From Chloroflexus aggregans DSM 9485 (GTDB lineage Bacteria > Chloroflexota > Chloroflexia > Chloroflexales > Chloroflexaceae), in the NCBI RefSeq assembly GCF_000021945.1, contig NC_011831.1, forward strand, positions 1,212,001 through 1,276,000: a stretch of 64,000 nucleotides of DNA. The letters run 5' to 3'. The notes beneath the pieces are model-generated. The model was not told the origin of the DNA, did no database searches, and was given only the letters and a program-made list of their open reading frames with translations. Every line of letters begins with the position of its first letter. Within the stretch, counting starts at the first letter, position 1. Positions 45,911-59,076 of this stretch are shown piece by piece. The position numbers and the translations under genes were made by a program.

Positions 45911-47443
45911 ATGAGGCACGAACACTCCCCGGCAGGGTTACCTCACTATGATCTGTACATCAACGGTGCATGGCAGCCGGCGAGCAGTAAACAGACCTTT
46001 ACCGTCTTCGATCCGGCCAACGGCCAACCACTAGCAACCTGCGCTAGTGCCAGCCCCACCGATGTTGATCGGGCCATCGCCGCTGCCCGATCGGCATTTG
46101 ACCACGGCCCGTGGCCGCACACCAGCCCAGCGCGTCGGGCCGAGATTTTGCATGCGTTGGCCGACGCACTCGAAGCGCGTAATTTTGAATTAGCCGAGAT
46201 TGAATCTCGCAACGCCGGTGTGCCACTCCGCAAAACGACGTACAACGATATTACCCTTGGTATCGAGATTTTGCGTGGCTGTGCCGAGATGGCTCGCAAG
46301 CATCCCTACGAACCGTTACCGTGGAACGACTTGCCGAGTGTTTCGTGGAATTTTGTCTGGCGTGAACCGATCGGTGTCTGTGCCCAGATTATTCCATGGA
46401 ACTATGCCTTCTGTATGGCGGCGTGGAAACTCGGGCCGGCATTGGCCACCGGCAATACGGTTGTCTTTAAGCCGTCGTCGCTCGCACCGTTAAGTACATT
46501 GGCAATTATTCAAGCGATCCACGAGCTGAACCTTCTGCCGAAAGGGGTAGTCAATCTCGTCCTCGGTCCCGGCGGTGAAGTTGGTGAGTATCTGGTCGCT
46601 CACCCAGATGTCGATAAGGTCGCGTTTACCGGTAGCACTGAAGTCGGGCGCAAAATTATGGCACTTGCCGCTCCTCACATCAAGCGGGTGACACTTGAAT
46701 TAGGTGGCAAGAACGCCATGATCATTCTCCCCGATGCCGATCTTGATCTGGTCGTCGATGGTGTGCTATGGGGTGCGTTTTATCACAGTGGTCAATTGTG
46801 CGAAGCCGGTTCGCGTCTGCTCGTTCCCCACGCCCTCCACGATACGCTCGTCTCCCGCTTGGTAGAACGAGTGCGCACTATGCGGATCGGTGACCCGATG
46901 GATCTTGAAACTGACATCGGCCCACTGATCAGCGAACAACAGCGTGCGAAGGTCGAGCGCTATATCGCCATCGGTCGCGAAGAAGGAGCAACGGTGGTCA
47001 TTGGCGGTAGGAGACCGCCGGACGAAGCACGCGCCAAGGGGTATTATGTCGAGCCAACTATCTTCACCGGTGTGCGGCCAGAGATGCGAATTGCGCGAGA
47101 AGAGATCTTCGGGCCGGTGTTGGCCGTCATAGCGTATGAAGAGGTTAGTGAAGCGATCAAGATTGCCAACGACAGCATCTACGGTCTCGCCGCCTCGGTG
47201 TGGTCACGCGATCTCCAACAGGCCCTGGCCGTAGCCAAACGCATTCGCGCCGGCACGGTCTGGATCAACGAACATCACGTCCTCAACCCTCAGGCGCCGT
47301 TTGGCGGGTACCGTCAGAGCGGGTTTGGCCGCGAGATGGGGCGTTACGGCCTCGATGAGTATACTGAAGTCAAGCATATTCATGTTGACCTGATGCAGCG
47401 CCGACAGGGCAGGTTATGGTGGGATACCCTCTTGCCTGAATAG
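45911..47443 (+). CDS. NAD(P)-dependent aldehyde dehydrogenase
   Basis: 510 residues of the betaine-aldehyde-dehydrogenase-like group. The family motifs are complete: PIGVCAQIIPWNYAFCMAAWKLGPAL, VAFTGSTEVGRKIM, the general-base Glu in VTLELGGKNAMI, and catalytic Cys297 in SGQLCEAGSRLLV. The C-terminal EEIFGPVLAVI and PFGGYRQSGFGREMG are typical. It oxidises an aldehyde to the acid; the substrate cannot be fixed. The ATG at 45911 has AAGGAG 8 bases upstream. It is monocistronic, followed by a nested inverted repeat. Confidence 0.95.
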   Translation: MRHEHSPAGLPHYDLYINGAWQPASSKQTFTVFDPANGQPLATCASASPTDVDRAIAAARSAFDHGPWPHTSPARRAEILHALADALEARNFELAEIESRNAGVPLRKTTYNDITLGIEILRGCAEMARKHPYEPLPWNDLPSVSWNFVWREPIGVCAQIIPWNYAFCMAAWKLGPALATGNTVVFKPSSLAPLSTLAIIQAIHELNLLPKGVVNLVLGPGGEVGEYLVAHPDVDKVAFTGSTEVGRKIMALAAPHIKRVTLELGGKNAMIILPDADLDLVVDGVLWGAFYHSGQLCEAGSRLLVPHALHDTLVSRLVERVRTMRIGDPMDLETDIGPLISEQQRAKVERYIAIGREEGATVVIGGRRPPDEARAKGYYVEPTIFTGVRPEMRIAREEIFGPVLAVIAYEEVSEAIKIANDSIYGLAASVWSRDLQQALAVAKRIRAGTVWINEHHVLNPQAPFGGYRQSGFGREMGRYGLDEYTEVKHIHVDLMQRRQGRLWWDTLLPE

Positions 47444-47459
47444 TAGTTGACGATGGCCT

Positions 47460-47519
47460 GGTGCAAAGATGCTCAGGGTGAGCGTACCATCCTGCTGTCT
47501 TTCCTCACATCTTTGCACC
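47460..47519. other. Nested inverted repeat between aldehyde dehydrogenase and radical SAM genes
   Basis: Outer arms GGTGCAAAGATG (47460-47471) and CATCTTTGCACC (47508-47519) are perfect over 12 bases. The space between includes a small hairpin GCTCA-GGG-TGAGC starting at 47471. It may serve as a terminator of the dehydrogenase gene or be a regulatory leader of the next gene, 26 bases on. No T tract. Confidence 0.5.
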
Positions 47520-47544
47520 GGTTATCCAGAAGCCATCGACTGTT

Positions 47545-48717
47545 ATGACAACCGATATTACGATCAGTCTTCAACCACACCATCTCACGCTTGCCGAGGC
47601 GATGCGCACGATTATCGCCTTCGACGGTGAGGGACGGCCAATTGTCGCGTTTCGCAACGGTACGAATTACGTGCGTGGGCTTAGTGGTGATGTGCTGCTG
47701 AAACGGACGATCGCTCCCGGGCAGAAGGAACGACGCAAACTGTCCGCTGACGAGCGACAGGCCATCCTCGCCGAGATATTGCACGATGCTCATCGGATGA
47801 TCGAGCAGATAGCGGCAACAGTACCACCGGAAGCGCATGACTGGTTCAAGCGCATCCAACGGTGGGATGTAGCCGGCTTGGAAGAGGAACGAGAACGATT
47901 CCGTACTATCTACAAACCGATCAGTATTGTGCCGCCCGACCAATACCGTGCGCTTGTCTTGCAGGCTACCGAGGGATGTAGTTGGAATCGCTGCCATTTT
48001 TGCACGTTCTACCGTGATCGACCATTCCGTATTCACACACCAACCACATTTCGCGAACATATTCGACAGGTGAAAGCATTTGTTGGCGCCGGTCTTGGCT
48101 TGCGGATGGCCATTTTTCTCGGTGATGCTAATGCACTGATTATTCCTCAGCCGCGGCTACGTTCGTTACTCCAGGTGATTCATGAGGAGTTCCCGATTGG
48201 ACCAACAGCCCCTCTGAAAGGTATCTACTCCTTCCTCGACATTTTTGGGGCCGAACGGAAGACTCTTACCGATTACCGTGAATTGGCCGGCGCTGGTGTA
48301 CGCCGGATCTATCTTGGTCTTGAAAGTGGTGATGATACCGTATTCCATCAGCTTAACAAGCCCGGCTCACCGGCTGAAGCTATTGAGGTTGTGCAAACGA
48401 TCAAAGCTGCCGGGATTGCGGTCGGCGTGATCCTCCTCGCCGGGGCCGGGGGCAGTCGCTTCGCTGCCGATCATGTCCAACACTCCATCGATGTTATTGC
48501 CGCGATGAACCTCGGCCCAGACGATATTGTCTACCTCTCACCATTGATCGTTGGCCCTGATAGCCCTTATCTTGATCGGTTACGCGAGTCTGCTAGCCAA
48601 CCACTTGATACAGCGGAGATGATGGCCCAAGTACAGACGCTCAAGCAGAGCTTGCGCACGGTTGTTGCCCCCGGCACGAAGGTAGTGCTCTATCATATCG
48701 AAGAGTTTGTGTATTAG
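47545..48717 (+). CDS. Radical SAM protein of unknown substrate
   Basis: 390 residues. The cluster motif is CSWNRCHFC (C-x4-C-x2-C, in ATEGCSWNRCHFC), spacing seen in a COG1032-like subgroup rather than the common C-x3-C. It continues as a TIM barrel (IFLGDANALIIPQPRL, GVRRIYLGLESGDDTVF, AGIAVGVILLAGAGG). The N-terminal 135 residues are an unassigned domain, and there is no SPASM or cobalamin-binding domain. Without a characterised relative the reaction cannot be named. The gene lies 135 bases upstream of the cyclase-like gene and on the same strand, but that gene has its own strong promoter. Confidence 0.88.
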   Translation: MTTDITISLQPHHLTLAEAMRTIIAFDGEGRPIVAFRNGTNYVRGLSGDVLLKRTIAPGQKERRKLSADERQAILAEILHDAHRMIEQIAATVPPEAHDWFKRIQRWDVAGLEEERERFRTIYKPISIVPPDQYRALVLQATEGCSWNRCHFCTFYRDRPFRIHTPTTFREHIRQVKAFVGAGLGLRMAIFLGDANALIIPQPRLRSLLQVIHEEFPIGPTAPLKGIYSFLDIFGAERKTLTDYRELAGAGVRRIYLGLESGDDTVFHQLNKPGSPAEAIEVVQTIKAAGIAVGVILLAGAGGSRFAADHVQHSIDVIAAMNLGPDDIVYLSPLIVGPDSPYLDRLRESASQPLDTAEMMAQVQTLKQSLRTVVAPGTKVVLYHIEEFVY

Positions 48718-48764
48718 CGCGGTAACCCAACTCACGATGCCGTACAATTTTATCTAATCTCAAT

Positions 48765-48793
48765 CTGTCAGATAGGCACTACTCTGCTATAAT
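48765..48793 (+). promoter_or_regulatory. Promoter of the adenylyl-cyclase-like gene
   Basis: CTGTCA (48765-48770), 17 bases, TATAAT (48788-48793) with TGC before it. It has both a -35 (4/6) and a full extended -10, the best promoter in the window. The transcript should start near 48800. Confidence 0.65.
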
Positions 48794-48852
48794 TGAGATC
48801 GAATGCCGTGCTACATTGATAATCTGTGCCATTCGACAGGAGCGGCAGCTTG

Positions 48853-51800
48853 ATGTCTGACCAAGTATTTTCTCAGCTCGATCACGATCGGATCAAGAGC
48901 TACCTTGGGGCATCTCAAGCCGATGCCTTGTTGCGTGGTACGATACGACCGCATGAACTCTATGCGGTTTGTGCGCGGCTCGCAAACATCCAATACGCGC
49001 TTAGTACCTATCTACCACACCGATTAGTAGCACACCGTCTCGCCACGAACGATAACCGGCCATGGTTAGAATGGGTAGAAGGCACCTTGCTCTTTGCCGA
49101 CGTTAGCGGTTCTACCGCACTAGCCGAACGACTCAGCAGCCTTGGCCGCGAAGGTGTGGAAATCGTCACCGAGACACTCAACACCTATTTTGGCAGCTTA
49201 ATTCGCCGTATCCAACAAGCCGGCGGCGATCTTATCACCTTCGGTGGAGATGCCTTATTGGTGCTCTTTACCGACGACGATCATGCCTACACCGCAACCA
49301 TTGTTGCCCATGATATGTTGCACGCACAAGCCGGCTTTACCCGCGAAGTTCCGGGCATTGGCGTCTTCCCCCTCACGATGCACATCGGTATCGAGAGTGG
49401 TCGGGTGGCACTGGTCAACGCCGGTCGAGACGAAACCATGCGGTATAGTGCAATGGGATCGTGTGTCGAGCGAGTGGCCCGGGCCGAAGAGTTGAGTAGC
49501 AGTGGCGAAATCGTCATCGGGCCGCAGGCGTGGCAACGGCTGGCCGGGCGCGCCCAAGGTGAGCCAATCACCGATGGTTACATCAAATTAGCAGCCATCA
49601 GCGGAACTGCGGTGTCCGTCGCCTTACCACCCTACGACGTGCCGCCACCTTCCCGCGACACCGCTCTCCGTCTGCTGAGGAATATCGAACGGCTACGACC
49701 ATATCTACCACCGGTTTTGGTGGATCGGATCATTGCCCAACCCCGTCAGCCCCACCTCGAAGCCGATCTCAGACCGGTGTCAATCCTGTTTGCGCAAATT
49801 GATGGACTAGCCAAACTGATCGAAACCCTACCGGCAGAAAGCGCAGCGCACGTTATTGATACGGTCTGGCGTGTCGGATTCACGGCTGTGGAGCAGTATG
49901 GTGGCTACGTCAATAAGATCGATGTCTCGACCGAAGGGATTAAGCTCCTCGTCATCTTTGGTGCGCCGGTGGCCCAAGAAGATCATAGCGAGCGCGCGGC
50001 ACGGTCTGCCCTCGAACTTCGACGTGCATTTACAGCCCTCACCCAAGCGCATCCGGCCGGTATCTCGCTTGATCATCTCCGCTTACGAATTGGCTTAAAC
50101 AGCGGGATTGTGTTTGCCGGCAACGTGGGCGATATCGACCGCAAGGAATATACGGTGATGGGCGATTCCGTCAACGTAGCGGCACGTGTTATGGCTCACA
50201 GTGACTGGGGTGAAATTCGTGCGACCACACCGTTCGCCGTTGCTACCGGTACGGTTATGGTCTTCACCGATGCGCGCACGGTGAGTGTACGTGGCAAACG
50301 CGCACCGCTTGAATTACTCAGGCTCGAGGATGTCCGACACATACCAACCTCAGAAGTCCGGCGGCCAATAGTGGGACGGCGCCACGAGTTGGCATGGCTA
50401 CGTGAGCGGCTCGAATTGGCGTTAATCGGTCTTGGCCGGGTGGTGCGCATCAGCGGCGATGCCGGAATTGGTAAAACCCGGCTGGTCGCCGAACTGCTGG
50501 TCAGCGGCGTTCCGCGCGAAACCCGGATCGTGACGGTGCGCTGCCTATCATACCAGCAAAGTAAACCGTATGCACCGTGGAGTGATGCGCTGCAAGCGTT
50601 GTGTACGATCCCGGCGGACGCCGATCAGGCAACCCGTGCCGCTCGGTTGCGTCAGGCGTTGGCCGCTGCCGGTATTGCCGACGATTGGACACCAATTGTC
50701 GCCGATCTGGTTAAGCTCGATGTTGACGACAATGTGATCACGGGTGCGCTCGATCCGCAGCAACGGCAAGAGCGGCGGTTTGAAGTGATCCGGGCTATCA
50801 TTCACGCACAAGCTGCACCACGCGGTCTGATCCTCGTCTTCGACAATTTACAGTGGGCCGACCGAATTTCGCTTGATCTGTGGCGGTTTCTGGCCAGTTC
50901 GATTGCTCAGGTCCCCATTTTGCTCCTCGGTTTACATCGCGACTCATTAGAATGGAACGGCGATCCACTCGCAGACGGCGCGGAAGTTCTCACCCTAACC
51001 GAGCTACCGGCCGCCGATAGTGCCGCGTTGATTGCCGCCATTCCGGCAAGCGCGCGCATCGATCCAGATCTGCAAGCCCAGATTATCGCTCGTGCCGCCG
51101 GTAACCCACTCTTTATCGAAGAGCTGGTACGTACCGTGCAACAAGGTAACGCTAACCTCGATGAACTACCCGACAGCCTCAATGGTCTGTTACTGGCCCG
51201 CCTCGACCAGCTTGATGAACGATCCCGCTCCTTGCTCCGCGTAGCGGCAGTCGTTGGTCAACGTTTTCCCTTACCCGTTGTCCAATCGGTATATGGTGAA
51301 GATACTCAACAACTCATCGAGTGCATCAATCAGCTTGATGCGCAAGAGCTGACCCTGCTCGAGCATGAAACACCAGAACGGGTACACATTTTCCGGCACG
51401 CTCTGTTACACGAAGTAACATACCAGAGTATGCTCTTCTCGCGCCGACGTGAATTGCACCGTCAGATTGGCGAGTATCTTGAAAAACGGTACGCCCGTGA
51501 ACTGAGTCGGTTACGCCAAGAGTTTGCGGCCACCCGCCAGTATCGATATGTTCAGATCGGCCGTAATGGAATGTTTATGTCACGGGCCGCACGTGCGATT
51601 ATCGGCCCGATTTTCCTCCTCGCCCACCACTACCGACTAAGTGATACCCCCGACCGCGCGGTCCAGTATTTACTCATGGCCGGTCATCTATCCCGCGATG
51701 AGTATGCTAATGAACAAGCAATGACGTACTACCGTTGGGCCATCGACATTCTGGGCGATCGCGGTGATGATGCACGGCTCTGGGAAGCGATGGAAGCCCT

Positions 51801-53178
51801 CGGTGACATCCAAGCGGCGATTGGGCAATATGATGAGGCGCAACAGACCTATCAACACCTGCTCACGATCGGTGGTGAGCACTTACCGCCCGTTGTACAA
51901 GCCGAGGTTTTGCGATCGTGGGGAGCAGCGCTAGAGAAACAGGGGCGCTATCATGAAGCACTCGAACATCTACGTAAGGCCGAGGCAATCGCGAGTGCGG
52001 CTATTAATCATACGCCACCCCTTCTCTTAGCCGCAATTGCAGCCGACATCGCCCAAACATTTACCCGTCTTGCGCTGTTCGACGAAGCATTGGCAATGTG
52101 TGAGTCCGGCTTAGCACGTATCCGCAACGATCAACGGAGCGTCGAAGACGAACGGATTACCGCCGAACTGCAACAGCAATTAGGTATGATTTACGGCATG
52201 CGCGGCCATTACGATCTAGCTCGCTACCACTTCTTGAATGCATTGAGCGTACAAGAGACCATCGATGACCTCTACGGCTGCGCACGTACCCACAATAACC
52301 TCGGTTATCTGGCGCAGTTGCAGAGCGATTATGTTGCAGCAGTTAATCATTACCAACGAGCAGAGGAGTTGGCGCGAAAGGTTAGCGCGAAATATGCCCT
52401 TTCCAGCGTGTTGCTAAATGAGGCATATGCCTACTACCGTTTAGCCAGGTTCGATTCGGCCGAAGAAGCCTGTCGTAATGCGCTCGCGTTATGCGAAGAG
52501 ATGGGTGACCGATTAGGGGTGGCACAAGCCAGTGATACGTTGGGCATCATCAGTTATGCGCGCGGCAACTATCAGCATGCGCTCCACGTGTATCAGCAAG
52601 CCCTTACGATCTATACCGAACAACAAAGTACCTACCAATACGGTAACACGCTCGCGTTAGCGGCTGTGGCCGCCACTGCCAACGGTGATCCAGACCAAGG
52701 ACTAGCGTATGCGCAAGAAGCCTACCAGATCGGTGAACAGATTCAGGTACCACAGCTCATTGTCGAGGCACGCTGTGCGATGGCTGAGGCGCTATTAGCA
52801 CAAGCTCGCCGGCGCCACGACAGCGATATGCGCATAGCACTCTTGCATCAAGCTGCCGATCACGCCGACCACGCTGCAATCCTGGCCGAGCAGATCGGCA
52901 GTCGGCTCGATCAGGCAATGGCACTGCGCTTACGCGGCGAAATCGCCGCCGAACGCGACGAACCGTTTAGCGACTATTTCCACCGCGCACTCGACATCTT
53001 TAGCGCGATAAACTCCCGCTTTGAGCATGCGTGTACTACGGCCCGCTTTGGACTGGCACTGAATCACCGAAACTTTGCCGAAGCTGCTACGTATCTAGAA
53101 TATGCCAACAGAGAATTGGCCCTTATCGGCGCCAACGGTGAACTCCACCGACTGGCTACGCAACTTGGAGAGGTGTAA
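48853..53178 (+). CDS. Soluble-adenylyl-cyclase-like protein: two cyclase domains, AAA ATPase, TPRs
   Basis: 1441 residues from the ATG at 48853 (AGGAG 11 bases upstream; a GTG at 48826 is also in frame). Cyclase domain 1 (about 70-250) has both metal Asp residues, Asp83 (FADVSGST) and Asp133 (FGGDALLVLF), but Glu206 replaces the transition-state Asn. Domain 2 (about 305-480) has lost the first Asp (Gln315 in LFAQIDG) but keeps Thr434, Asn441 and Arg445 (EYTVMGDSVNVAAR). Together they could form one composite site. An AAA/STAND ATPase follows (Walker A GDAGIGKT, 535-542; Walker B LILVFDNLQWAD), then about 600 residues of TPR-like helices. It is the order of mammalian soluble adenylyl cyclase. 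The next gene starts one base after the stop. Confidence 0.88.
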   Translation: MSDQVFSQLDHDRIKSYLGASQADALLRGTIRPHELYAVCARLANIQYALSTYLPHRLVAHRLATNDNRPWLEWVEGTLLFADVSGSTALAERLSSLGREGVEIVTETLNTYFGSLIRRIQQAGGDLITFGGDALLVLFTDDDHAYTATIVAHDMLHAQAGFTREVPGIGVFPLTMHIGIESGRVALVNAGRDETMRYSAMGSCVERVARAEELSSSGEIVIGPQAWQRLAGRAQGEPITDGYIKLAAISGTAVSVALPPYDVPPPSRDTALRLLRNIERLRPYLPPVLVDRIIAQPRQPHLEADLRPVSILFAQIDGLAKLIETLPAESAAHVIDTVWRVGFTAVEQYGGYVNKIDVSTEGIKLLVIFGAPVAQEDHSERAARSALELRRAFTALTQAHPAGISLDHLRLRIGLNSGIVFAGNVGDIDRKEYTVMGDSVNVAARVMAHSDWGEIRATTPFAVATGTVMVFTDARTVSVRGKRAPLELLRLEDVRHIPTSEVRRPIVGRRHELAWLRERLELALIGLGRVVRISGDAGIGKTRLVAELLVSGVPRETRIVTVRCLSYQQSKPYAPWSDALQALCTIPADADQATRAARLRQALAAAGIADDWTPIVADLVKLDVDDNVITGALDPQQRQERRFEVIRAIIHAQAAPRGLILVFDNLQWADRISLDLWRFLASSIAQVPILLLGLHRDSLEWNGDPLADGAEVLTLTELPAADSAALIAAIPASARIDPDLQAQIIARAAGNPLFIEELVRTVQQGNANLDELPDSLNGLLLARLDQLDERSRSLLRVAAVVGQRFPLPVVQSVYGEDTQQLIECINQLDAQELTLLEHETPERVHIFRHALLHEVTYQSMLFSRRRELHRQIGEYLEKRYARELSRLRQEFAATRQYRYVQIGRNGMFMSRAARAIIGPIFLLAHHYRLSDTPDRAVQYLLMAGHLSRDEYANEQAMTYYRWAIDILGDRGDDARLWEAMEALGDIQAAIGQYDEAQQTYQHLLTIGGEHLPPVVQAEVLRSWGAALEKQGRYHEALEHLRKAEAIASAAINHTPPLLLAAIAADIAQTFTRLALFDEALAMCESGLARIRNDQRSVEDERITAELQQQLGMIYGMRGHYDLARYHFLNALSVQETIDDLYGCARTHNNLGYLAQLQSDYVAAVNHYQRAEELARKVSAKYALSSVLLNEAYAYYRLARFDSAEEACRNALALCEEMGDRLGVAQASDTLGIISYARGNYQHALHVYQQALTIYTEQQSTYQYGNTLALAAVAATANGDPDQGLAYAQEAYQIGEQIQVPQLIVEARCAMAEALLAQARRRHDSDMRIALLHQAADHADHAAILAEQIGSRLDQAMALRLRGEIAAERDEPFSDYFHRALDIFSAINSRFEHACTTARFGLALNHRNFAEAATYLEYANRELALIGANGELHRLATQLGEV

Positions 53179-53179
53179 C

Positions 53180-53398
53180 ATGTCACAAGCAGCCGTTGAG
53201 CAGATCATTGGTCGGGCCGTCGTTGATCCTGCGTTTCGCGAACAGCTTATCGCTGATGCACGGACTGCGTGCGCAGATTATGATCTGACCGAAGAGGAGT
53301 TGGAGGCACTTGAGAAGCTTGATACCGAGAGCTTGCAAGCCTTCGCCGGAAAGCTCGATCCACGCCTGACCAAGAGTGCCGGTCGTGGCTTCTTCTAA
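53180..53398 (+). CDS. 72-residue NHLP-clan (Os1348/Franean1_4349-like) protein, possible RiPP precursor
   Basis: Starts one base after the cyclase stop, with GGAGAGG upstream, so translation is probably coupled. The sequence begins MSQAAVEQIIGRAVVDPAFR, then EQLIADARTACADYDLTEEELEAL. This matches in style the short nitrile-hydratase-leader-like proteins: an A-V-x-D-P-x-F-R-x-x-L-x-x-D core, a Y-x-L-T-x-E-E turn and a final helix, AFAGKLDPRL. The tail is TKSAGRGFF. NHLP-clan proteins include leader peptides of modified peptides, but many have no known product, and no modifying enzyme is evident here. Only one Cys (in TACADY) and a few Ser/Thr are available for modification. A stable small signalling partner is an equally good reading. 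Confidence 0.8.
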   Translation: MSQAAVEQIIGRAVVDPAFREQLIADARTACADYDLTEEELEALEKLDTESLQAFAGKLDPRLTKSAGRGFF

Positions 53399-53677
53399 AG
53401 TAGGTGATGCGGTCGGAGCGTCTTCGGGTGGAACGCAGGTAGTGGGCAGGGCGTTGGCACAAGCAATACGAGCCTCATAGCCTCGGGAACGGTTAGAGGT
53501 GCGGGAATGTAGACCATCCTCTCGTGAAACAGGGCGCTGAGGCCTACAATACCCCCACCCGCACTTCAGCATCCTACCCCCGAACGCCATCCACCGTACC
53601 GATTGCGACTCATGTATGTCATATCGATCCGAACCAAACGACCATTCCCAGCACATCGCTTTCGGTAGGAACACACT

Positions 53678-56600
53678 ATGCAAGAACGGAGCGCCGATCG
53701 TCCTGAGATGACCTTCGTACCTCGCGCGCTCCGCGATCTCTTTTTGCCACGCCGTATACCGCGCGAGGTTCGTACTGCGGTTGAACAATGGCTTGAGAGT
53801 GAACCAATTACTCGCTTGCTACCGGTAGCGCTTGAGCTACCGTTGGGTCTTGATCTCGATCTAGCGAAGCTGATGAGCGAGCCGCATCACATCGCACTCA
53901 TCGGGCCGCCGGCCAGTGGTCGTAGCCTCGCGCTTGCCCAAATCGCCCGCCGTTGGCTCGATCAGCAACCGGCGATGCCGTTGGTGCGTTTATTGCTCGG
54001 CGAACTCGACTCACCGAGTCTGACCCCACGCGCGATCGTTGCTCGTGCATTGGCGAGGCGAAACCTCGCGCCGAACCCACTCGAACACAACCTCCCTTGC
54101 CTTCTGTTGATCGACGACTGGGAGGAGTTGCCACTCGCCCGTCGAGCCGTCTGGCAGCGGTTTCTCATCCGTCTACCCGAACGCTGGTCGCGGGCATGCA
54201 CGGTCGTCGCGTTACCCACGGGAGAATTGTGGCCGGGATTTCGTCATCATGCCATTGCACCGTTATCTGCCGAACATCTGGCAGAATGGGTACAGCGCCT
54301 CTTCACCTTTACCGATCGCCAAGAAGGATTGGACCTCTTTGAGCGTGATCCACTCGTGCTCCTGCGCGAGCGCCCGGCAGAGATTTTGATGCTGGCCCTG
54401 ACCCACCCACTCAGTGGATGGCCGATTTCGCGCGCCGCGCTGTACGAACGTACCGCTGCCTTCGTCGCACCGATTATCGTTGCTACGGATGAACAGGCTG
54501 GTTGGCGGATTGGGCTAACTGCATACCGGTTGTATCGGCAAGCAATAGAATTGGCCGCACAAACGACACCTCATCCGGCAACCATCCGTCAAGCTACGCC
54601 ACACTGGCGTGGGTTGTGTATCCCGCTGGCCTTCGGCGCCGCTCCTGACCCGCGTCCGCTGATCGATGCGCTTGCAGATGCTACACTCCCTTCTCACGAA
54701 CGCCTGTCGCTGCTGGCACGTTCGCTTCGTGAACGTCCTCGACTCGATCCGGCACTTAGCCGGCCCATTCTCGACGAAATTTGTCGCTCGCGGGGTGAGG
54801 CACTCGCTACCCTCGTCCCGGTGTTACCGGTTATTTTGACCGATATTGGCCGTACCCAATCAGGCCAGCTTAACGAGTTGTTAGAACGGATTACCGAACT
54901 TTTGCCGCCAGAGACGAGCACGACCCTCCTGATTACCATCCTCGACACCGGCGATGCTCCGCCTGTATTACGCTGGCAGGCAATTGATTTGCTGTGCCGG
55001 CAACGCATATTGCCGCCGCCGTTACCGACCTACGCCGATCTGATCAGTCAAGCAGGGCGTTGCCTCCTCGCAGTGGTCCATCCCGACACAATCCATCACC
55101 TCGCCGAACCGGCCTTACAGCTTGGCCTACGTTTACTGCTCAGCGGTGCAGCCGGTACAAACCGGCAATATTTGATTGCCCATCACCTCTTGGCCCACAC
55201 CACATTACCGGCCAGTGTCCGCGCGCTCGCACCGGCAGCCCTTCCGCCTGCCGAAGTCGGGCAAGCGATTGTCGATCCGATGCCCGAAGTACGGCAAGCA
55301 GCGCGTAAGGTATGGATCCGCACCGGTCATATTGATCAACTCGCCCGCTTTGTCACCCAAACCGACAAACCATGGTCGGCCCGTGATGAAGCGTTGACCG
55401 ATCTTGCAACGACAGCCGACGGCCAAACCTTTATCGCGGCTTTTGCAATTGGCAATCGCCTCCCGCTCGATCTGCGGCTGCGGGCGATTCGACTGCTCAG
55501 CCGACTACCAAATGGGACCGAGCTTCTCAAACGTCTCCTTTACGCCGAGCACGAACCCGAAATTATTCGCGCGGCTGCGGTACGCAGTCTCAGCCACAAC
55601 TTCCACGTCATCACCCACCTCGGCCCACTACTCGACCGCAGGCATCCACCGCTCATTCGCCGTACCACCGTGCATGTGCTCAGTGCAATTGCCCGTCTTC
55701 ATCAATCGGCGGCACTCACTGCACGAACCAGCTTACTCACGGTACTGAACCAACCTGATCTAGATGCAGCACTGACGACAACCATCATTGAAACACTCGG
55801 CAAGCACGGTGGAAAGCAAGCATTAGCAGCACTCGGTCACACCCTGGCACCGACCTACGGTGTCACCCTGCTCGAAACATGGATCACCTCGTTTCCGGCA
55901 TTGATCGGGCCGAGTGAACAGTGGATCGATCAAGCCGACAACCCAACTGTTCGGGCACTACTAGCCGATCTGATGGTCGCGATTGCCAACCATCCGAACC
56001 TCATCGGAGTCGAGCTTGACCGGCCATCGGCATTGATTGCCGGTCACGTCATGATATTGAGCAGCGCCACCGCACGTACACTCGGCACTATTGGTCAACA
56101 TCAACCGACATTGATGCCGGCAGTTCGCGCCTTGATCGGTGTCGCGCTGTATGACACCAGTACGCTTCGACCGCTCAGCGAACTACTAAACGCCGACCCA
56201 ACGTGTGACTTAGTAGCAATTGTCCGCAATACCGAACACGACCCGCCATTGCGTTATACCGCCTTGCATGCGCTCGCGCAACAGCCTAACGGTGCAGAAG
56301 CACTCTTGTACCTCGCCAAACACGCAGACAGCGATTTGGCATGTACTGCACTCGATCGGCTCCAACCGCCATTACCACCAACGCTCAACGAGCAACTGCT
56401 ACAATTGGTCAACACTGCTACCGACGAAGCGGTGCGACTTGCCGGATTACGGGCACTGGGCCGCAATGCAGACCCTGCTGCGGTACCCGCGCTCCTCGAG
56501 ATTGCGCTGAACAATGAAGAGACTACTGCGATCCGTGCCGCAGCCCTCGATGCGATTGTCGAGGCACCGGTTGCGCCGCTCACCGAGTTAATTACCTCAC

Positions 56601-57346
56601 AACCAGAACCGATCCGTAGTGCTGCTCTGCGTGCGCTGAGTCGTAGTCCGCAACCGGGCCCGGCCCCTATCTTACACCGCCTTGCCTTCGACCCCGACCG
56701 AACCTGTGCGCTCGCTGCGGTAAGCGCGCTCGCCGCCCATCCCGAAACCCATACGCCGATCCTGGCCCGCTTGATCCGCAGCCATCCCGATCTGGCTGTA
56801 CGCCTCGCAGCAGCGGCAGCCTTTGATGCGTCGGCAGCCGACGAGACCATACCGGTCTTTGTGGAAGCATTGCTCTCGCCGTATCCGGCACTCCAAACCC
56901 AAGCCTTCCGGCTCCTCGCTGCCATCGACCCGTATCATGCAGCATTACGTCAACCACTAACCGATCCGCAGCAGACGGTTGTCCTCCGCTTTCAAGCGTT
57001 GCACCATCTCAGCACATACGCACCGAACGATCCGCTCATTCGCCAAGTGGCGAATGATCCGACGGCACCTGAACAATTACGCTGCCACGCCATTGCCGTA
57101 TTGGGTCGGCAAGCCGATGCAACTGTCGTCGACGTATTACTTCGGCTTGCCGGTGATGCTACGCAACCACCGGCAGTGAAGCATGCAGCAATCGCTGCTC
57201 TCGACCGGCAATGGACTGAAGTTGGGCACGAGGCGGCGCTCACCGCACTGATTACCCTTGTCACATCACCGATTCCCGAAGTAGTGCTGTGGGCCGGCAC
57301 GGTACTGCTTGACCGGCTGGTACCGATCGAGATCGGTGAACCGTAA
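53678..57346 (+). CDS. P-loop NTPase-like/HEAT-repeat protein
   Basis: 1222 residues. The N-terminal part (about 45-280) resembles a STAND/AAA module: Walker A-like GPPASGRS at 76-83, where Arg82 stands for the usual Lys, and Walker B-like LLLIDDWEE at 143-151. The remainder (about 330-1210) is a long array of HEAT/ARM-like helical pairs (PEIIRAAAVRSLSHNF; EEtTAIRAAALDAIVEAPV; PAVKHAAIAALDRQW). There is no signal peptide or membrane helix, so it is probably a cytosolic scaffold with weak or no ATPase activity. TAGGA lies 8 bases before the ATG. It is separated from the NHLP gene by 279 bases without a clear promoter or terminator. Confidence 0.82.
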   Translation: MQERSADRPEMTFVPRALRDLFLPRRIPREVRTAVEQWLESEPITRLLPVALELPLGLDLDLAKLMSEPHHIALIGPPASGRSLALAQIARRWLDQQPAMPLVRLLLGELDSPSLTPRAIVARALARRNLAPNPLEHNLPCLLLIDDWEELPLARRAVWQRFLIRLPERWSRACTVVALPTGELWPGFRHHAIAPLSAEHLAEWVQRLFTFTDRQEGLDLFERDPLVLLRERPAEILMLALTHPLSGWPISRAALYERTAAFVAPIIVATDEQAGWRIGLTAYRLYRQAIELAAQTTPHPATIRQATPHWRGLCIPLAFGAAPDPRPLIDALADATLPSHERLSLLARSLRERPRLDPALSRPILDEICRSRGEALATLVPVLPVILTDIGRTQSGQLNELLERITELLPPETSTTLLITILDTGDAPPVLRWQAIDLLCRQRILPPPLPTYADLISQAGRCLLAVVHPDTIHHLAEPALQLGLRLLLSGAAGTNRQYLIAHHLLAHTTLPASVRALAPAALPPAEVGQAIVDPMPEVRQAARKVWIRTGHIDQLARFVTQTDKPWSARDEALTDLATTADGQTFIAAFAIGNRLPLDLRLRAIRLLSRLPNGTELLKRLLYAEHEPEIIRAAAVRSLSHNFHVITHLGPLLDRRHPPLIRRTTVHVLSAIARLHQSAALTARTSLLTVLNQPDLDAALTTTIIETLGKHGGKQALAALGHTLAPTYGVTLLETWITSFPALIGPSEQWIDQADNPTVRALLADLMVAIANHPNLIGVELDRPSALIAGHVMILSSATARTLGTIGQHQPTLMPAVRALIGVALYDTSTLRPLSELLNADPTCDLVAIVRNTEHDPPLRYTALHALAQQPNGAEALLYLAKHADSDLACTALDRLQPPLPPTLNEQLLQLVNTATDEAVRLAGLRALGRNADPAAVPALLEIALNNEETTAIRAAALDAIVEAPVAPLTELITSQPEPIRSAALRALSRSPQPGPAPILHRLAFDPDRTCALAAVSALAAHPETHTPILARLIRSHPDLAVRLAAAAAFDASAADETIPVFVEALLSPYPALQTQAFRLLAAIDPYHAALRQPLTDPQQTVVLRFQALHHLSTYAPNDPLIRQVANDPTAPEQLRCHAIAVLGRQADATVVDVLLRLAGDATQPPAVKHAAIAALDRQWTEVGHEAALTALITLVTSPIPEVVLWAGTVLLDRLVPIEIGEP

Positions 57347-57400
57347 GCAATCGCTAACAAGCTGCTTTGCCGGCCACTAGTTCAGTGAAAGGAGTAAGGA

Positions 57401-58294
57401 ATGTCCCACACCAATTTCGTCACGACGAGCCGTGGCTTACGTCGCAACAGCCCACCAATGCGTCTGTTTGAGAAAGCAAAACAGTTTGGCATCTGGAACC
57501 CCTCACTGCTCGATTTCAGCCGTGACATTGACGATTGGAATCGGCTGAGTGACGAAGAACGCGATTTATTACTACGTCTGACGGCCCTCTTTCAGGCCGG
57601 CGAAGAAGCTGTTACCCTCGACTTGTTACCTCTGATCAAAGCCATTGCGCACGATGGACGGCTAGAGGAGGAGCTATTTCTCACCACGTTCTTGTTTGAA
57701 GAAGCCAAGCATACCGATTTCTTTGCCCGCTTCATCAGCGAAGTAGCCCGCGTCGACCCCGACCTCAGTCGCTACCATACGCCTAGCTATCGGGCACTGA
57801 TTTACGACGCGCTTCCGCGTGCAATGCAACGTCTAGAGCACGATCCGTCACCGTTCAACCTCGCCGAAGCGTCGCTCACGTACAATATGATCGTTGAAGG
57901 GGTACTCGCCGAGACCGGATACCACGGCTACTTCACAATTCTCGACACTCACAATCTGATGCCCGGTGTACGTGAGGGGATTCGGCTGCTCAAACAAGAC
58001 GAGTCGCGTCACATTGCGTATGGCATCTACCTCCTATCACGCCTGATCGCTGCCGACCGGCAGATTTGGGATCATATCGTTGAGCGGATGAACGAGCTTG
58101 TCATACACGCTTTAGGCGTCATCGATGAGATCTTTACCAGTTATGATACAATGCCGTTTGGCTTGCAAATCGAGACCTTCAGCACCTTCGCCCTAAACCA
58201 ATTCCAACGCCGTCTTAATCGGCTGGAACTGGCGTGTCAGCAGAGCCTCGCCGAGATTGAAGGACTGGCGACCGATGATGAGGAAGCCGCATGA
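57401..58294 (+). CDS. R2-like ligand-binding oxidase (Mn/Fe R2lox)
   Basis: 297 residues of the ferritin-like ribonucleotide-reductase-R2 relatives. All six metal ligands of R2lox are present: Glu68, Glu101, His104, Glu166, Glu201 and His204. The residues of the Tyr-Val ether cross-link, Val71 (GEEAV) and Tyr161 (YNMIVEG), sit at the exact spacing. No R1-interacting C-terminal tail or radical-transfer Tyr pair is seen, so it is not a class I reductase. R2lox proteins bind a fatty-acid-like ligand and perform two-electron oxidation; the natural reaction is unknown. AAAGGAG lies before the ATG, and its stop overlaps the SDR start. Confidence 0.92.
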   Translation: MSHTNFVTTSRGLRRNSPPMRLFEKAKQFGIWNPSLLDFSRDIDDWNRLSDEERDLLLRLTALFQAGEEAVTLDLLPLIKAIAHDGRLEEELFLTTFLFEEAKHTDFFARFISEVARVDPDLSRYHTPSYRALIYDALPRAMQRLEHDPSPFNLAEASLTYNMIVEGVLAETGYHGYFTILDTHNLMPGVREGIRLLKQDESRHIAYGIYLLSRLIAADRQIWDHIVERMNELVIHALGVIDEIFTSYDTMPFGLQIETFSTFALNQFQRRLNRLELACQQSLAEIEGLATDDEEAA

Positions 58295-59076
58295 GTACGT
58301 TCTTGCGACGGGTTGTCTTACTAACCGGTGCCGGTGGCGGATTGGGACGCGAGTTTGCTCACCAACTGTTAGCTGCCGGCGCCGACCTTATCCTGAGCAG
58401 TCACCATCCACATCGGCTGACTGCCGCTGCCGAGTTTGCGGCCCACCACCAGACGAGTCCGCATCCCGGTCGCATTCGGGCTTTACTACCGGCAGACTTG
58501 AGCGATCCGGCTAGTTGTGACCGGCTGGCCCAACAGGTGATGCATGTAGCCCCCGATCTCGATCTGATTATTCACAACGCCGGCGTCGGTCTGTATGGCC
58601 CACTCAATGTTATCCCGCCGGCTGCCATCGAACGTCTCTTACAGATTAATCTCCACGCCCCGATCCGACTCACCGCCGCACTCTTACCGATGTTGCGCCA
58701 TCGTCCTAACGGACAGATCGTCTTCATCTCGTCGATCCTTGGTCGCGCCGCACTACCCAATATTAGCGTCTACAGTGCGGCGAAGTTCGGCCTGCGCGGC
58801 TTTGCCAGTGGTCTCGCTGCCGACGGCTATTGCGTCAGTACGGTTTATCCTTTTTTCACCCAAACCGACATCCTCGATGCACCACAGTATGGCGAAGGCC
58901 CGCCACGGCGTGTCCCGCGCTGGTTGGTCGATCAGCCGCGCCCGGTGGTCCGAGCGAGCCTTGCCGGGATCGCTGCCCGTCGCCGACATATCTTTCCTGG
59001 TTGGAAAGCAAAACTGTTCGCAGTTGTTGCTGCGGTTGCGCCTGATCTCCTACCACCGTTTAGCCGGCTGGTGTAG
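58291..59076 (+). CDS. Short-chain dehydrogenase/reductase
   Basis: 261 residues of the classical SDR fold. Nucleotide site TGAGGGLGREF (residues 12-22), D of PADLSDP, NAG of IIHNAGVGLYG, catalytic Ser in FISSILG, and Y-x-x-x-K in VYSAAKFGL. The His-rich SHHPHR loop after the second strand may favour NADP. The ATG overlaps the R2lox stop (ATGA), so the two are made together; an R2lox product (alcohol or ketone) is a natural guess for its substrate. The C-terminal hydrophobic helix (AKLFAVVAAVAPDLLPPF) may touch the membrane. Confidence 0.92.
   Translation: MSTFLRRVVLLTGAGGGLGREFAHQLLAAGADLILSSHHPHRLTAAAEFAAHHQTSPHPGRIRALLPADLSDPASCDRLAQQVMHVAPDLDLIIHNAGVGLYGPLNVIPPAAIERLLQINLHAPIRLTAALLPMLRHRPNGQIVFISSILGRAALPNISVYSAAKFGLRGFASGLAADGYCVSTVYPFFTQTDILDAPQYGEGPPRRVPRWLVDQPRPVVRASLAGIAARRRHIFPGWKAKLFAVVAAVAPDLLPPFSRLV

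What the first reader, a model, noticed from the sequence alone, without database searches (positions are those of the whole stretch)
53180..53398. 72-residue NHLP-clan protein fused in expression to a giant cyclase/ATPase
The small gene starts one base after the cyclase stop. It resembles the Os1348/Franean1_4349 type of nitrile-hydratase-leader-like proteins, a clan that includes RiPP precursors. No lanthionine synthetase, YcaO or maturase is next to it. The tight coupling suggests the peptide works with the signalling protein, either as substrate, regulator or signal.
Basis: partly seen in the sequence, partly recalled or inferred. Interest (0 to 1): 0.72.

Follow-up and report, generated by a model that had tools for sequence, protein, structure and literature searches.

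The report
Small partner protein of bacterial cyclase
A 72-residue helical protein from a family usually filed under natural-product precursors is inherited together with a giant cAMP-making sensor enzyme across an order of largely photosynthetic bacteria, with none of the tested modifying enzymes in this genome, so it more likely controls that enzyme than becomes an antibiotic.

Summary
ORF 53180-53398 starts one base after the cyclase stop and passes NCBIfam NF038399 (85.7 bits, cut-off 40) and PF14407 (88.7, cut-off 48). The cyclase is built like mammalian soluble adenylyl cyclase; catalytic residues are invariant in 27 of 27 aligned orthologues.

The pair is old and tight. Of 82 genomes of the order, 41 have the orthologous TPR region, 41 the small protein, 37 both, always as neighbours on one strand. 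In Chloroploca two genomes lack the cyclase; the small gene is intact in one and carries stops in the other. The small protein has lower dN than the cyclase in 16 of 16 pairs, and the genome has no YcaO, LanC-like, MNIO, SPASM or PqqD match. That argues against a RiPP precursor.

Elsewhere in Chloroflexota, related small proteins adjoin other signalling proteins: BTAD-STAND-TPR regulators (13 of 76 loci) and SpoIIE-type proteins (17 of 115 loci). Best reading: a dedicated intracellular partner, probably read by the NTPase/TPR half of the cyclase. Binding is not shown.

The parts
53180..53398 (+). Os1348-type NHLP-clan small protein, 72 aa; helices predicted at residues 3-15, 17-32, 38-58, 61-69; conserved tail L59-D60-x-R62-[LI]-[ST]-K65-x-x-G68-x-G70-[FL] (D60 and [ST]64 each differ in 1 of 23), residues 65-72 modelled with pLDDT under 50
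48826..53178 (+). sAC-like adenylyl cyclase, up to 1450 aa (GTG start listed; an in-frame ATG at codon 10, 48853, is possible because residues 1-50 are poorly conserved)
49093..49575 (+). cyclase C1-type domain (about residues 90-250); D92 and D142 invariant in 27 of 27 aligned sequences (window included)
49771..50301 (+). cyclase C2-type domain (Guanylate_cyc, residues 316-492); K364, N450, R454 invariant in 27 of 27
50368..50925 (+). AAA_16 / STAND-like NTPase (residues 515-700; Walker A-like motif at 544-551)
51787..53064 (+). TPR region (about residues 988-1413), the proposed reader of the small protein (inferred)
53167..53173 (+). GGAGAGG ribosome-binding-like stretch 6 nt before the small ORF, inside the cyclase coding sequence
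   Evidence: read directly

Best explanation
The two genes form a dedicated two-protein signalling module. The large protein is an adenylyl cyclase built like mammalian soluble adenylyl cyclase: a paired C1/C2 catalytic site followed by a STAND-type NTPase and a TPR region (shown by sequence). The 72-residue protein is its co-expressed, helical, probably unmodified cytoplasmic partner (co-inheritance shown; binding inferred). I propose that the helical body and the conserved, apparently flexible C-terminal tail dock on the NTPase/TPR half and set the cyclase's off/on state, so that the amount or state of the small protein is converted into cAMP. Shown: gene coupling, near-exclusivity, conservation, intact catalytic residues, absence of five tested RiPP enzyme families. 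Inferred: physical binding, direction of regulation, which half of the cyclase is contacted, the stimulus.
For: Co-inheritance: 41 and 41 of 82 genomes, 37 with both (Fisher p 5e-14, not corrected for phylogeny), all 37 neighbours on one strand; the distance between the aligned cyclase end and the small ORF is 4-92 nt in 35 and 230 and 518 nt in two. The flanking genes differ between groups of genera. Six other cyclase/NTPase relatives in the same genome have no such partner, because the genome holds a single copy of the small gene. Chloroploca: compared with G260, G222 and G253 lack the cyclase between otherwise matching flanks; the small gene is intact in G222 and carries stops in G253. dN of the small protein is below the cyclase's in 16 of 16 pairs, and omega is lower in 10 of the 12 pairs where both could be computed. 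The cyclase is sAC-like over residues 61-458 (ADCY10, E 6e-29), catalytic residues invariant. No YcaO, LanC-like, MNIO, PqqD or SPASM match in the genome. Related small proteins in other Chloroflexota adjoin a second type of cyclase-AAA-TPR (L081), BTAD-STAND-TPR regulators (13 of 76 loci) and SpoIIE-type proteins (17 of 115 loci). The helix-3 region of STAND-adjacent ones resembles the cyclase-linked one more than that of others does (one-sided Mann-Whitney p 0.001; 0.002 after removing the broken L175 and five nitrile hydratase hits).
Against: No binding data; co-inheritance would also fit a substrate or a processed signal. G428 has the cyclase and no small protein in a genome listed as 93% complete, and G222 keeps an intact small gene without the cyclase. 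Omega of the small protein is not lower than the cyclase's in 2 of 12 pairs (window-L095, window-L105). The AlphaFold model is only moderate (mean pLDDT 68, pTM 0.39) and Foldseek found no PDB match, not even 6lk7. Other members of the same Pfam family sit in RiPP-like clusters (L088 with an MNIO enzyme, L071 with a B12-radical SAM and an M3 peptidase). The BTAD genes lie 141-948 nt upstream, not tightly coupled. The two small proteins beside the second cyclase (L081) do not share the helix-3 signature (scores -6.9 and -10.2).
Confidence: 0.55

Rival explanations
1. Precursor of a RiPP: the NHLP-like body is a leader and the C-terminal stretch after the conserved D-x-R-x-[ST]-K motif is a core, modified by enzymes encoded elsewhere; the cyclase only regulates production.
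For: The family models are named for RiPP precursors. Relatives lie beside an MNIO enzyme (L088), and a B12-radical SAM plus M3 peptidase (L071). A D-x-R-x-[ST]-K-like motif, often followed by a glycine- or aromatic-rich tail, recurs in 20 of 80 distant hits (shuffle mean 0.7, maximum 4 in 500 shuffles; relatedness not corrected). A radical-SAM gene lies directly upstream of the cyclase in the window.
Against: No YcaO, LanC-like, MNIO, PqqD/RRE or SPASM match in this genome, one contig. The radical SAM is within 1.3 kb upstream of the cyclase in 5 of 6 fetched Chloroflexus loci (the sixth is at a contig end) and in 0 of 20 other cyclase-bearing loci, of which only the first 1.6 kb or so upstream was in view and at least two end inside the cyclase. 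The tail has no cysteine and is about as conserved as the body (mean majority share 0.75 against 0.80).
Confidence: 0.13
2. Peptide pheromone of RRNPP type: the body carries a short C-terminal signal that is released, exported and re-imported, and the TPR region of the cyclase is its receptor, as in Rap-Phr or AimR-AimP.
For: Receptor gene directly followed by its small gene, TPR receptor, short tail after a basic motif. RRNPP layout recalled from general knowledge.
Against: No hydrophobic signal sequence is visible at the N terminus (inspection; no predictor was available). The whole body, not only the tail, is conserved.
Confidence: 0.13
3. The small protein is not a partner of the cyclase but an independent helical protein that uses the operon only for its expression.
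For: Intact copy without the cyclase in G222 and a cyclase without it in G428; the Os1348 founder protein works in a different gene context (PMC7726476).
Against: 37 of 37 adjacency while flanks differ, stops in G253 where the cyclase is missing, recurrence beside a second cyclase-AAA-TPR and beside STAND-TPR regulators.
Confidence: 0.14

Closest known systems
Os1348 of Pseudomonas sp. Os17 (family NF038399; I take PDB 6lk7, 85 aa, to be it)
   Same: Same small-protein family; a profile of the cyclase-linked proteins matches chain 6lk7_A at E 5e-6 over residues 2-55. Os1348 is an all-helical protein crystallised as a dimer, with its six C-terminal residues not seen in the density map (PMC7726476, abstract and three sections read).
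   Different: Os1348 is followed by acetyltransferase, putative peptidase and SagB-type dehydrogenase genes and affects antibiotic activity; here the fixed neighbour is a cyclase.
Mammalian soluble adenylyl cyclase ADCY10 and Chloroflexus cyclases of that type
   Same: C1-C2 arrangement with split catalytic residues, followed by NTPase and TPR regions (ADCY10's own NTPase and TPR parts recalled). A review states that bicarbonate activation was shown for cyclases from Chloroflexus bacteria (PMC11006738, one passage seen).
   Different: No partner of this small-protein family was named in the papers found; whether this cyclase is bicarbonate-activated is unknown.
TOMM kinase/cyclase fusion protein (TIGR03903) and HaaT TPR protein (NF041717)
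   Same: Large signalling or TPR proteins named after RiPP systems; the cyclase scores 191 and 75 bits against them. PMC2887384 mentions a large Ser/Thr kinase beside the NHLP-Burk precursors (passage).
   Different: Far under both cut-offs (705.75 and 1125), no kinase domain found by Pfam, none of the tested RiPP enzymes in the genome.
RRNPP receptor-peptide pairs (recalled)
   Same: TPR receptor gene followed by a small cognate gene.
   Different: Here the small protein is a conserved helical domain without a visible signal sequence, and the receptor is a cyclase-NTPase.

Membership tests
Os1348 family NHLP clan protein (NF038399) / Frankia_peptide (PF14407) | Score above curated cut-off | tested here: met
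   85.7 bits against 40; 88.7 bits against 48
NHLP leader RiPP precursor (TIGR03793) | Score above curated cut-off | tested here: not met
   16 bits against 50.9
RiPP precursor | Cognate modification enzyme in the cluster or genome | tested here: not met
   No YcaO, LANC_like, MNIO, PqqD or SPASM match in the genome at E 0.001; other enzyme classes, ATP-grasp among them, were not searched genome-wide, and a radical-SAM gene without SPASM lies upstream of the cyclase
RiPP precursor | Conserved leader, variable core | tested here: not met
   Tail residues 59-72 mean majority share 0.75, body 0.80; L59, R62, K65, G68, G70 invariant in 23 of 23 aligned proteins, i.e. the window and 22 of the 30 loci
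RiPP precursor | Modified mature product | not testable with these tools
   needs mass spectrometry
Soluble adenylyl cyclase type (ADCY10-like) | C1 with both metal aspartates, C2 with Lys, Asn and Arg | tested here: met
   D92, D142, K364, N450, R454 in 27 of 27; aligned to ADCY10 over 61-458; roles of residues recalled
Soluble adenylyl cyclase type (ADCY10-like) | Bicarbonate activation | not testable with these tools
   needs enzyme assay
TOMM kinase/cyclase (TIGR03903) | Score above equivalog cut-off | tested here: not met
   191 bits against 705.75
RRNPP-type pheromone | N-terminal secretion signal in the pro-peptide | tested here: inconclusive
   None visible by inspection of the N terminus; no signal-peptide predictor was available

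The most novel reading that the evidence does not exclude
Os1348-type NHLP-clan small proteins are, in Chloroflexota, a general class of dedicated partners for STAND-NTPase/TPR switches whose output domain is exchangeable: adenylyl cyclase here, BTAD transcription activator elsewhere, and in a second branch SpoIIE-type phosphatases. The RiPP precursors of the clan would then be one specialised use of an older signalling module, in which the leader is the part recognised by a partner protein.
Probability: 0.3. Interest if true: 0.84.

Novelty: new variant of a known kind. Interest (0 to 1): 0.63.

Why it matters
The curated models name such genes after RiPP-type peptides. This pair suggests that at least one branch of the family regulates cAMP synthesis instead. 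It would give bacterial sAC-like and STAND-TPR signalling proteins, whose inputs are mostly unknown (general knowledge), a genetically encoded candidate ligand that can be tested in one experiment, and it offers a possible reason why kinase/cyclase and TPR signalling proteins also turn up as named parts of some RiPP systems.

Tried and rejected
Radical SAM gene 47545-48717 as maturase: weak family matches only (best TIGR04479, 37 bits against 600) and seen near the pair only in Chloroflexus. HEAT-repeat gene 53678-57346 as a third member: present in 6 of 6 fetched Chloroflexus loci and 0 of 20 other cyclase-bearing loci. The roughly 500-aa genes upstream of the cyclase in other genera: of 11 compared, they form two mutually unrelated groups and two singletons, so no common partner. 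Nitroreductase next to the small gene: seen in Chloroploca only. Plasmids: no match of the small protein at E 0.01; 578 records match the cyclase, none over 80% of the query and all under 60% identity. Viral contigs: 137 pattern matches, none encodes a relative. Foldseek against PDB: no match with the moderate model. Promoter/terminator scan 53300-53720 and Rfam 47000-58500: nothing. Literature: the searches returned no paper whose listing, title or abstract start describes this pair; two searches listed only 15 of 386 and 15 of 330 papers, so this negative is weak.

Rows and caveats. One search covers all 121 PF14407 hits outside the window's own genome (92 genomes, 115 loci). In one search the 13 BTAD-type neighbours include L091 (29.5 bits, a 309-aa TPR protein) and L169 (a 309-aa piece). 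One search used 1.5 kb and so also counts L072, L178 and the cyclase locus L081. One search found BTAD in 13 and TPR_12 in 13 of the 14 proteins given, one of which, L082, has its BTAD gene downstream and was not among the 13. Only 2 of the 17 SpoIIE-type proteins were tested with Pfam (L033, L070); the others were matched to the L033 protein by phmmer. Some weak PF14407 hits look like nitrile hydratase alpha subunits (VCTLCSC motif in L157, L161, L163, L165, L179; motif recalled), so the 76-locus denominator holds non-partners. The motif pattern was chosen after looking at the sequences; the matrix came from cyclase-linked proteins only. The tests ignore phylogeny. The loci and the G genomes overlap (for example L114 and L065 are the same contig by length), so they are not independent.

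Full report
What is there. The ORF at 53180-53398 on the + strand encodes 72 residues and begins one base after the stop of a 1450-codon cyclase ORF (48826-53178); a GGAGAGG stretch lies 6 nt before its ATG, inside the cyclase's last codons. The small protein passes the curated cut-offs of NF038399 (Os1348 family NHLP clan) and PF14407 (Franean1_4349 prototype), but not that of the NHLP leader family TIGR03793. A profile of 17 related proteins matches chain 6lk7_A, 85 residues and named 'nitrile hydratase, alpha chain', at E 5e-6; I take this to be Os1348 from its length and name.

The partner. The cyclase has two class III cyclase domains, an AAA_16/STAND-like NTPase and a TPR region. Its catalytic half aligns with ADCY10 over residues 61-458 at E 6e-29. 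The metal aspartates D92 and D142 lie in the first domain and K364, N450 and R454 in the second, all invariant in 27 of 27 aligned sequences; so it is most likely an active enzyme with one composite site, as in ADCY10 (roles of residues recalled).

Linkage. In the phylum sample 93 of 400 genomes have a PF14407 hit at E 1e-4 or better, 30 of 400 over the cut-off. Of the 39 loci fetched first (L032-L070), 26 have the cyclase upstream of the small gene, 11 have a SpoIIE-type protein downstream, one (L065) lacks the cyclase and one (L042) has neither. A pattern-based scan of the named genome collection returned 30 loci, all titled as Chloroflexota members; 28 have a cyclase match upstream, L098 shows by eye the cyclase's end at a contig edge, and L114 (Candidatus Chloroploca asiatica) lacks it. 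This set overlaps the first. In the 82 genomes returned for the order (100 asked), the TPR region of the orthologue occurs in 41 and the small protein in 41, both in 37, and in all 37 they are neighbours on one strand. Of the four with the cyclase only, three end at a contig edge (G401, G415, G432) and one is a real exception (G428). Of the four with the small protein only, G400 is at a contig edge with a cyclase-like end, G222 and G253 lack the cyclase, and G102 is a different member beside a B12-radical SAM and an M3 peptidase.

A natural deletion. In Chloroploca, G260 has transporter - cyclase - small gene - nitroreductase. In G222 and G253 the DNA on both sides aligns at about 91-93% identity and the roughly 5 kb with the cyclase is missing, with no cyclase remnant found by tblastn at meaningful E-values. 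That it is a loss and not a gain elsewhere follows from the wide presence of the pair (inference). The small gene is intact in G222 and carries two in-frame stops in G253. This is what a gene that depends on the cyclase should do, but it is one genus only, and omega between G260 and the cyclase-less G222 (0.155) is the highest of the 16 values computed, from few substitutions.

Selection. dN of the small protein is below the cyclase's, and its identity above it, in 16 of 16 pairs; omega is lower in 10 of 12 pairs where both could be computed and not in window-L095 and window-L105. Twenty-three residues are invariant in 23 proteins, 18 in residues 1-58 and 5 in the tail; the tail (59-72) is about as conserved as the body, 0.75 against 0.80 mean majority share, although the model gives residues 65-72 pLDDT under 50. 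A conserved flexible end on a helical body would suit a docking element (inference). RiPP cores usually vary more than leaders (general knowledge).

No maturation machinery found. The own genome, one contig, has no match to YcaO, LANC_like, MNIO, PqqD or SPASM at E 0.001, while each search rings in some of its 14 control genomes. The radical-SAM neighbour was seen near the pair only in Chloroflexus.

The wider pattern. The remaining 80 hits lie in 76 loci. BTAD-STAND-TPR regulators lie on the same strand within 1 kb upstream in 13 of 76 loci; by gene position, 13 of 68 against 10 of 611 elsewhere in the same loci (Fisher p 1.7e-8; among genes of at least 600 aa, 10 of 20 against 6 of 56, p 6e-4). 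Pfam finds BTAD in 13 and TPR_12 in 13 of the 14 proteins given. L081 has a different cyclase-AAA-TPR (one cyclase domain, zinc-ribbon-like start) followed by two small genes. SpoIIE-type genes follow the small gene in 17 of 115 loci, 11 in the first group and 6 in this one. Proteins matching a cNMP-binding/M50 reference are among the two nearest genes on a side in 13 of 115 loci, some perhaps through the M50 part. A CRP-type regulator lies beside one (L075). RiPP-like settings also occur (L088 with MNIO, L071), and many loci show none of these partners. The helix-3 region of the STAND-adjacent small proteins scores higher against a matrix from the cyclase-linked ones than that of the others (17 against 63 hits, p 0.001; p 0.002 without the broken L175 and five nitrile hydratase hits), but the two beside the L081 cyclase do not share it.

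Mechanism. I favour a dedicated partner that docks on the NTPase/TPR half and sets cyclase activity. Gene coupling, constraint and intact catalytic residues are shown; contact, direction and stimulus are inferred. The main rivals are a RiPP precursor modified by unknown enzymes and a released C-terminal signal; both are testable by mass spectrometry.

Literature. PMC7726476 (Os1348): abstract and three sections read. PMC2887384 (NHLP) and PMC8939145 (graspetides): passages only. PMC11006738 (sAC review): abstract start and one passage. All other papers: search listings only.

Noticed in passing
L033, L038, L040, L041, L043, L054 (same-genus genomes): A second Os1348-type small protein (ending in W, WS or WN) lies 23-359 nt before a SpoIIE-type gene in all six same-genus genomes; the window's own genome has no such copy.
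   Followed up: partly
L063: Three tandem small Os1348-type genes in front of a SpoIIE-type gene in one genome of a sister family.
   Followed up: no
L078, L080, L083, L084, L085, L131: Os1348-type domain followed by long, repetitive, low-complexity sequence, with a shared D-Q-R-M-S-K motif, near proteins matching a cNMP-binding/M50 reference.
   Followed up: no
L086 and L090: Os1348-type domain as the N-terminal part of proteins that by inspection look like single-pass membrane proteins with a long outer segment.
   Followed up: no
L073: Two tandem small proteins with tails very rich in tryptophan after a D-x-R-D-S-K motif; they look more like RiPP or membrane-active cores than the window protein does.
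   Followed up: no
window 47545-48717: Radical-SAM protein with a CX4CX2C-type motif (inspection), upstream of the cyclase only in Chloroflexus among the loci seen; no confident family.
   Followed up: partly
window 53678-57346: 1222-aa HEAT-repeat protein, next to the pair only in Chloroflexus; its N-terminal part has a P-loop-like stretch by inspection.
   Followed up: no
L157, L161, L163, L165, L179: PF14407 also picks up what look like nitrile hydratase alpha subunits, in line with the known clan link.
   Followed up: no
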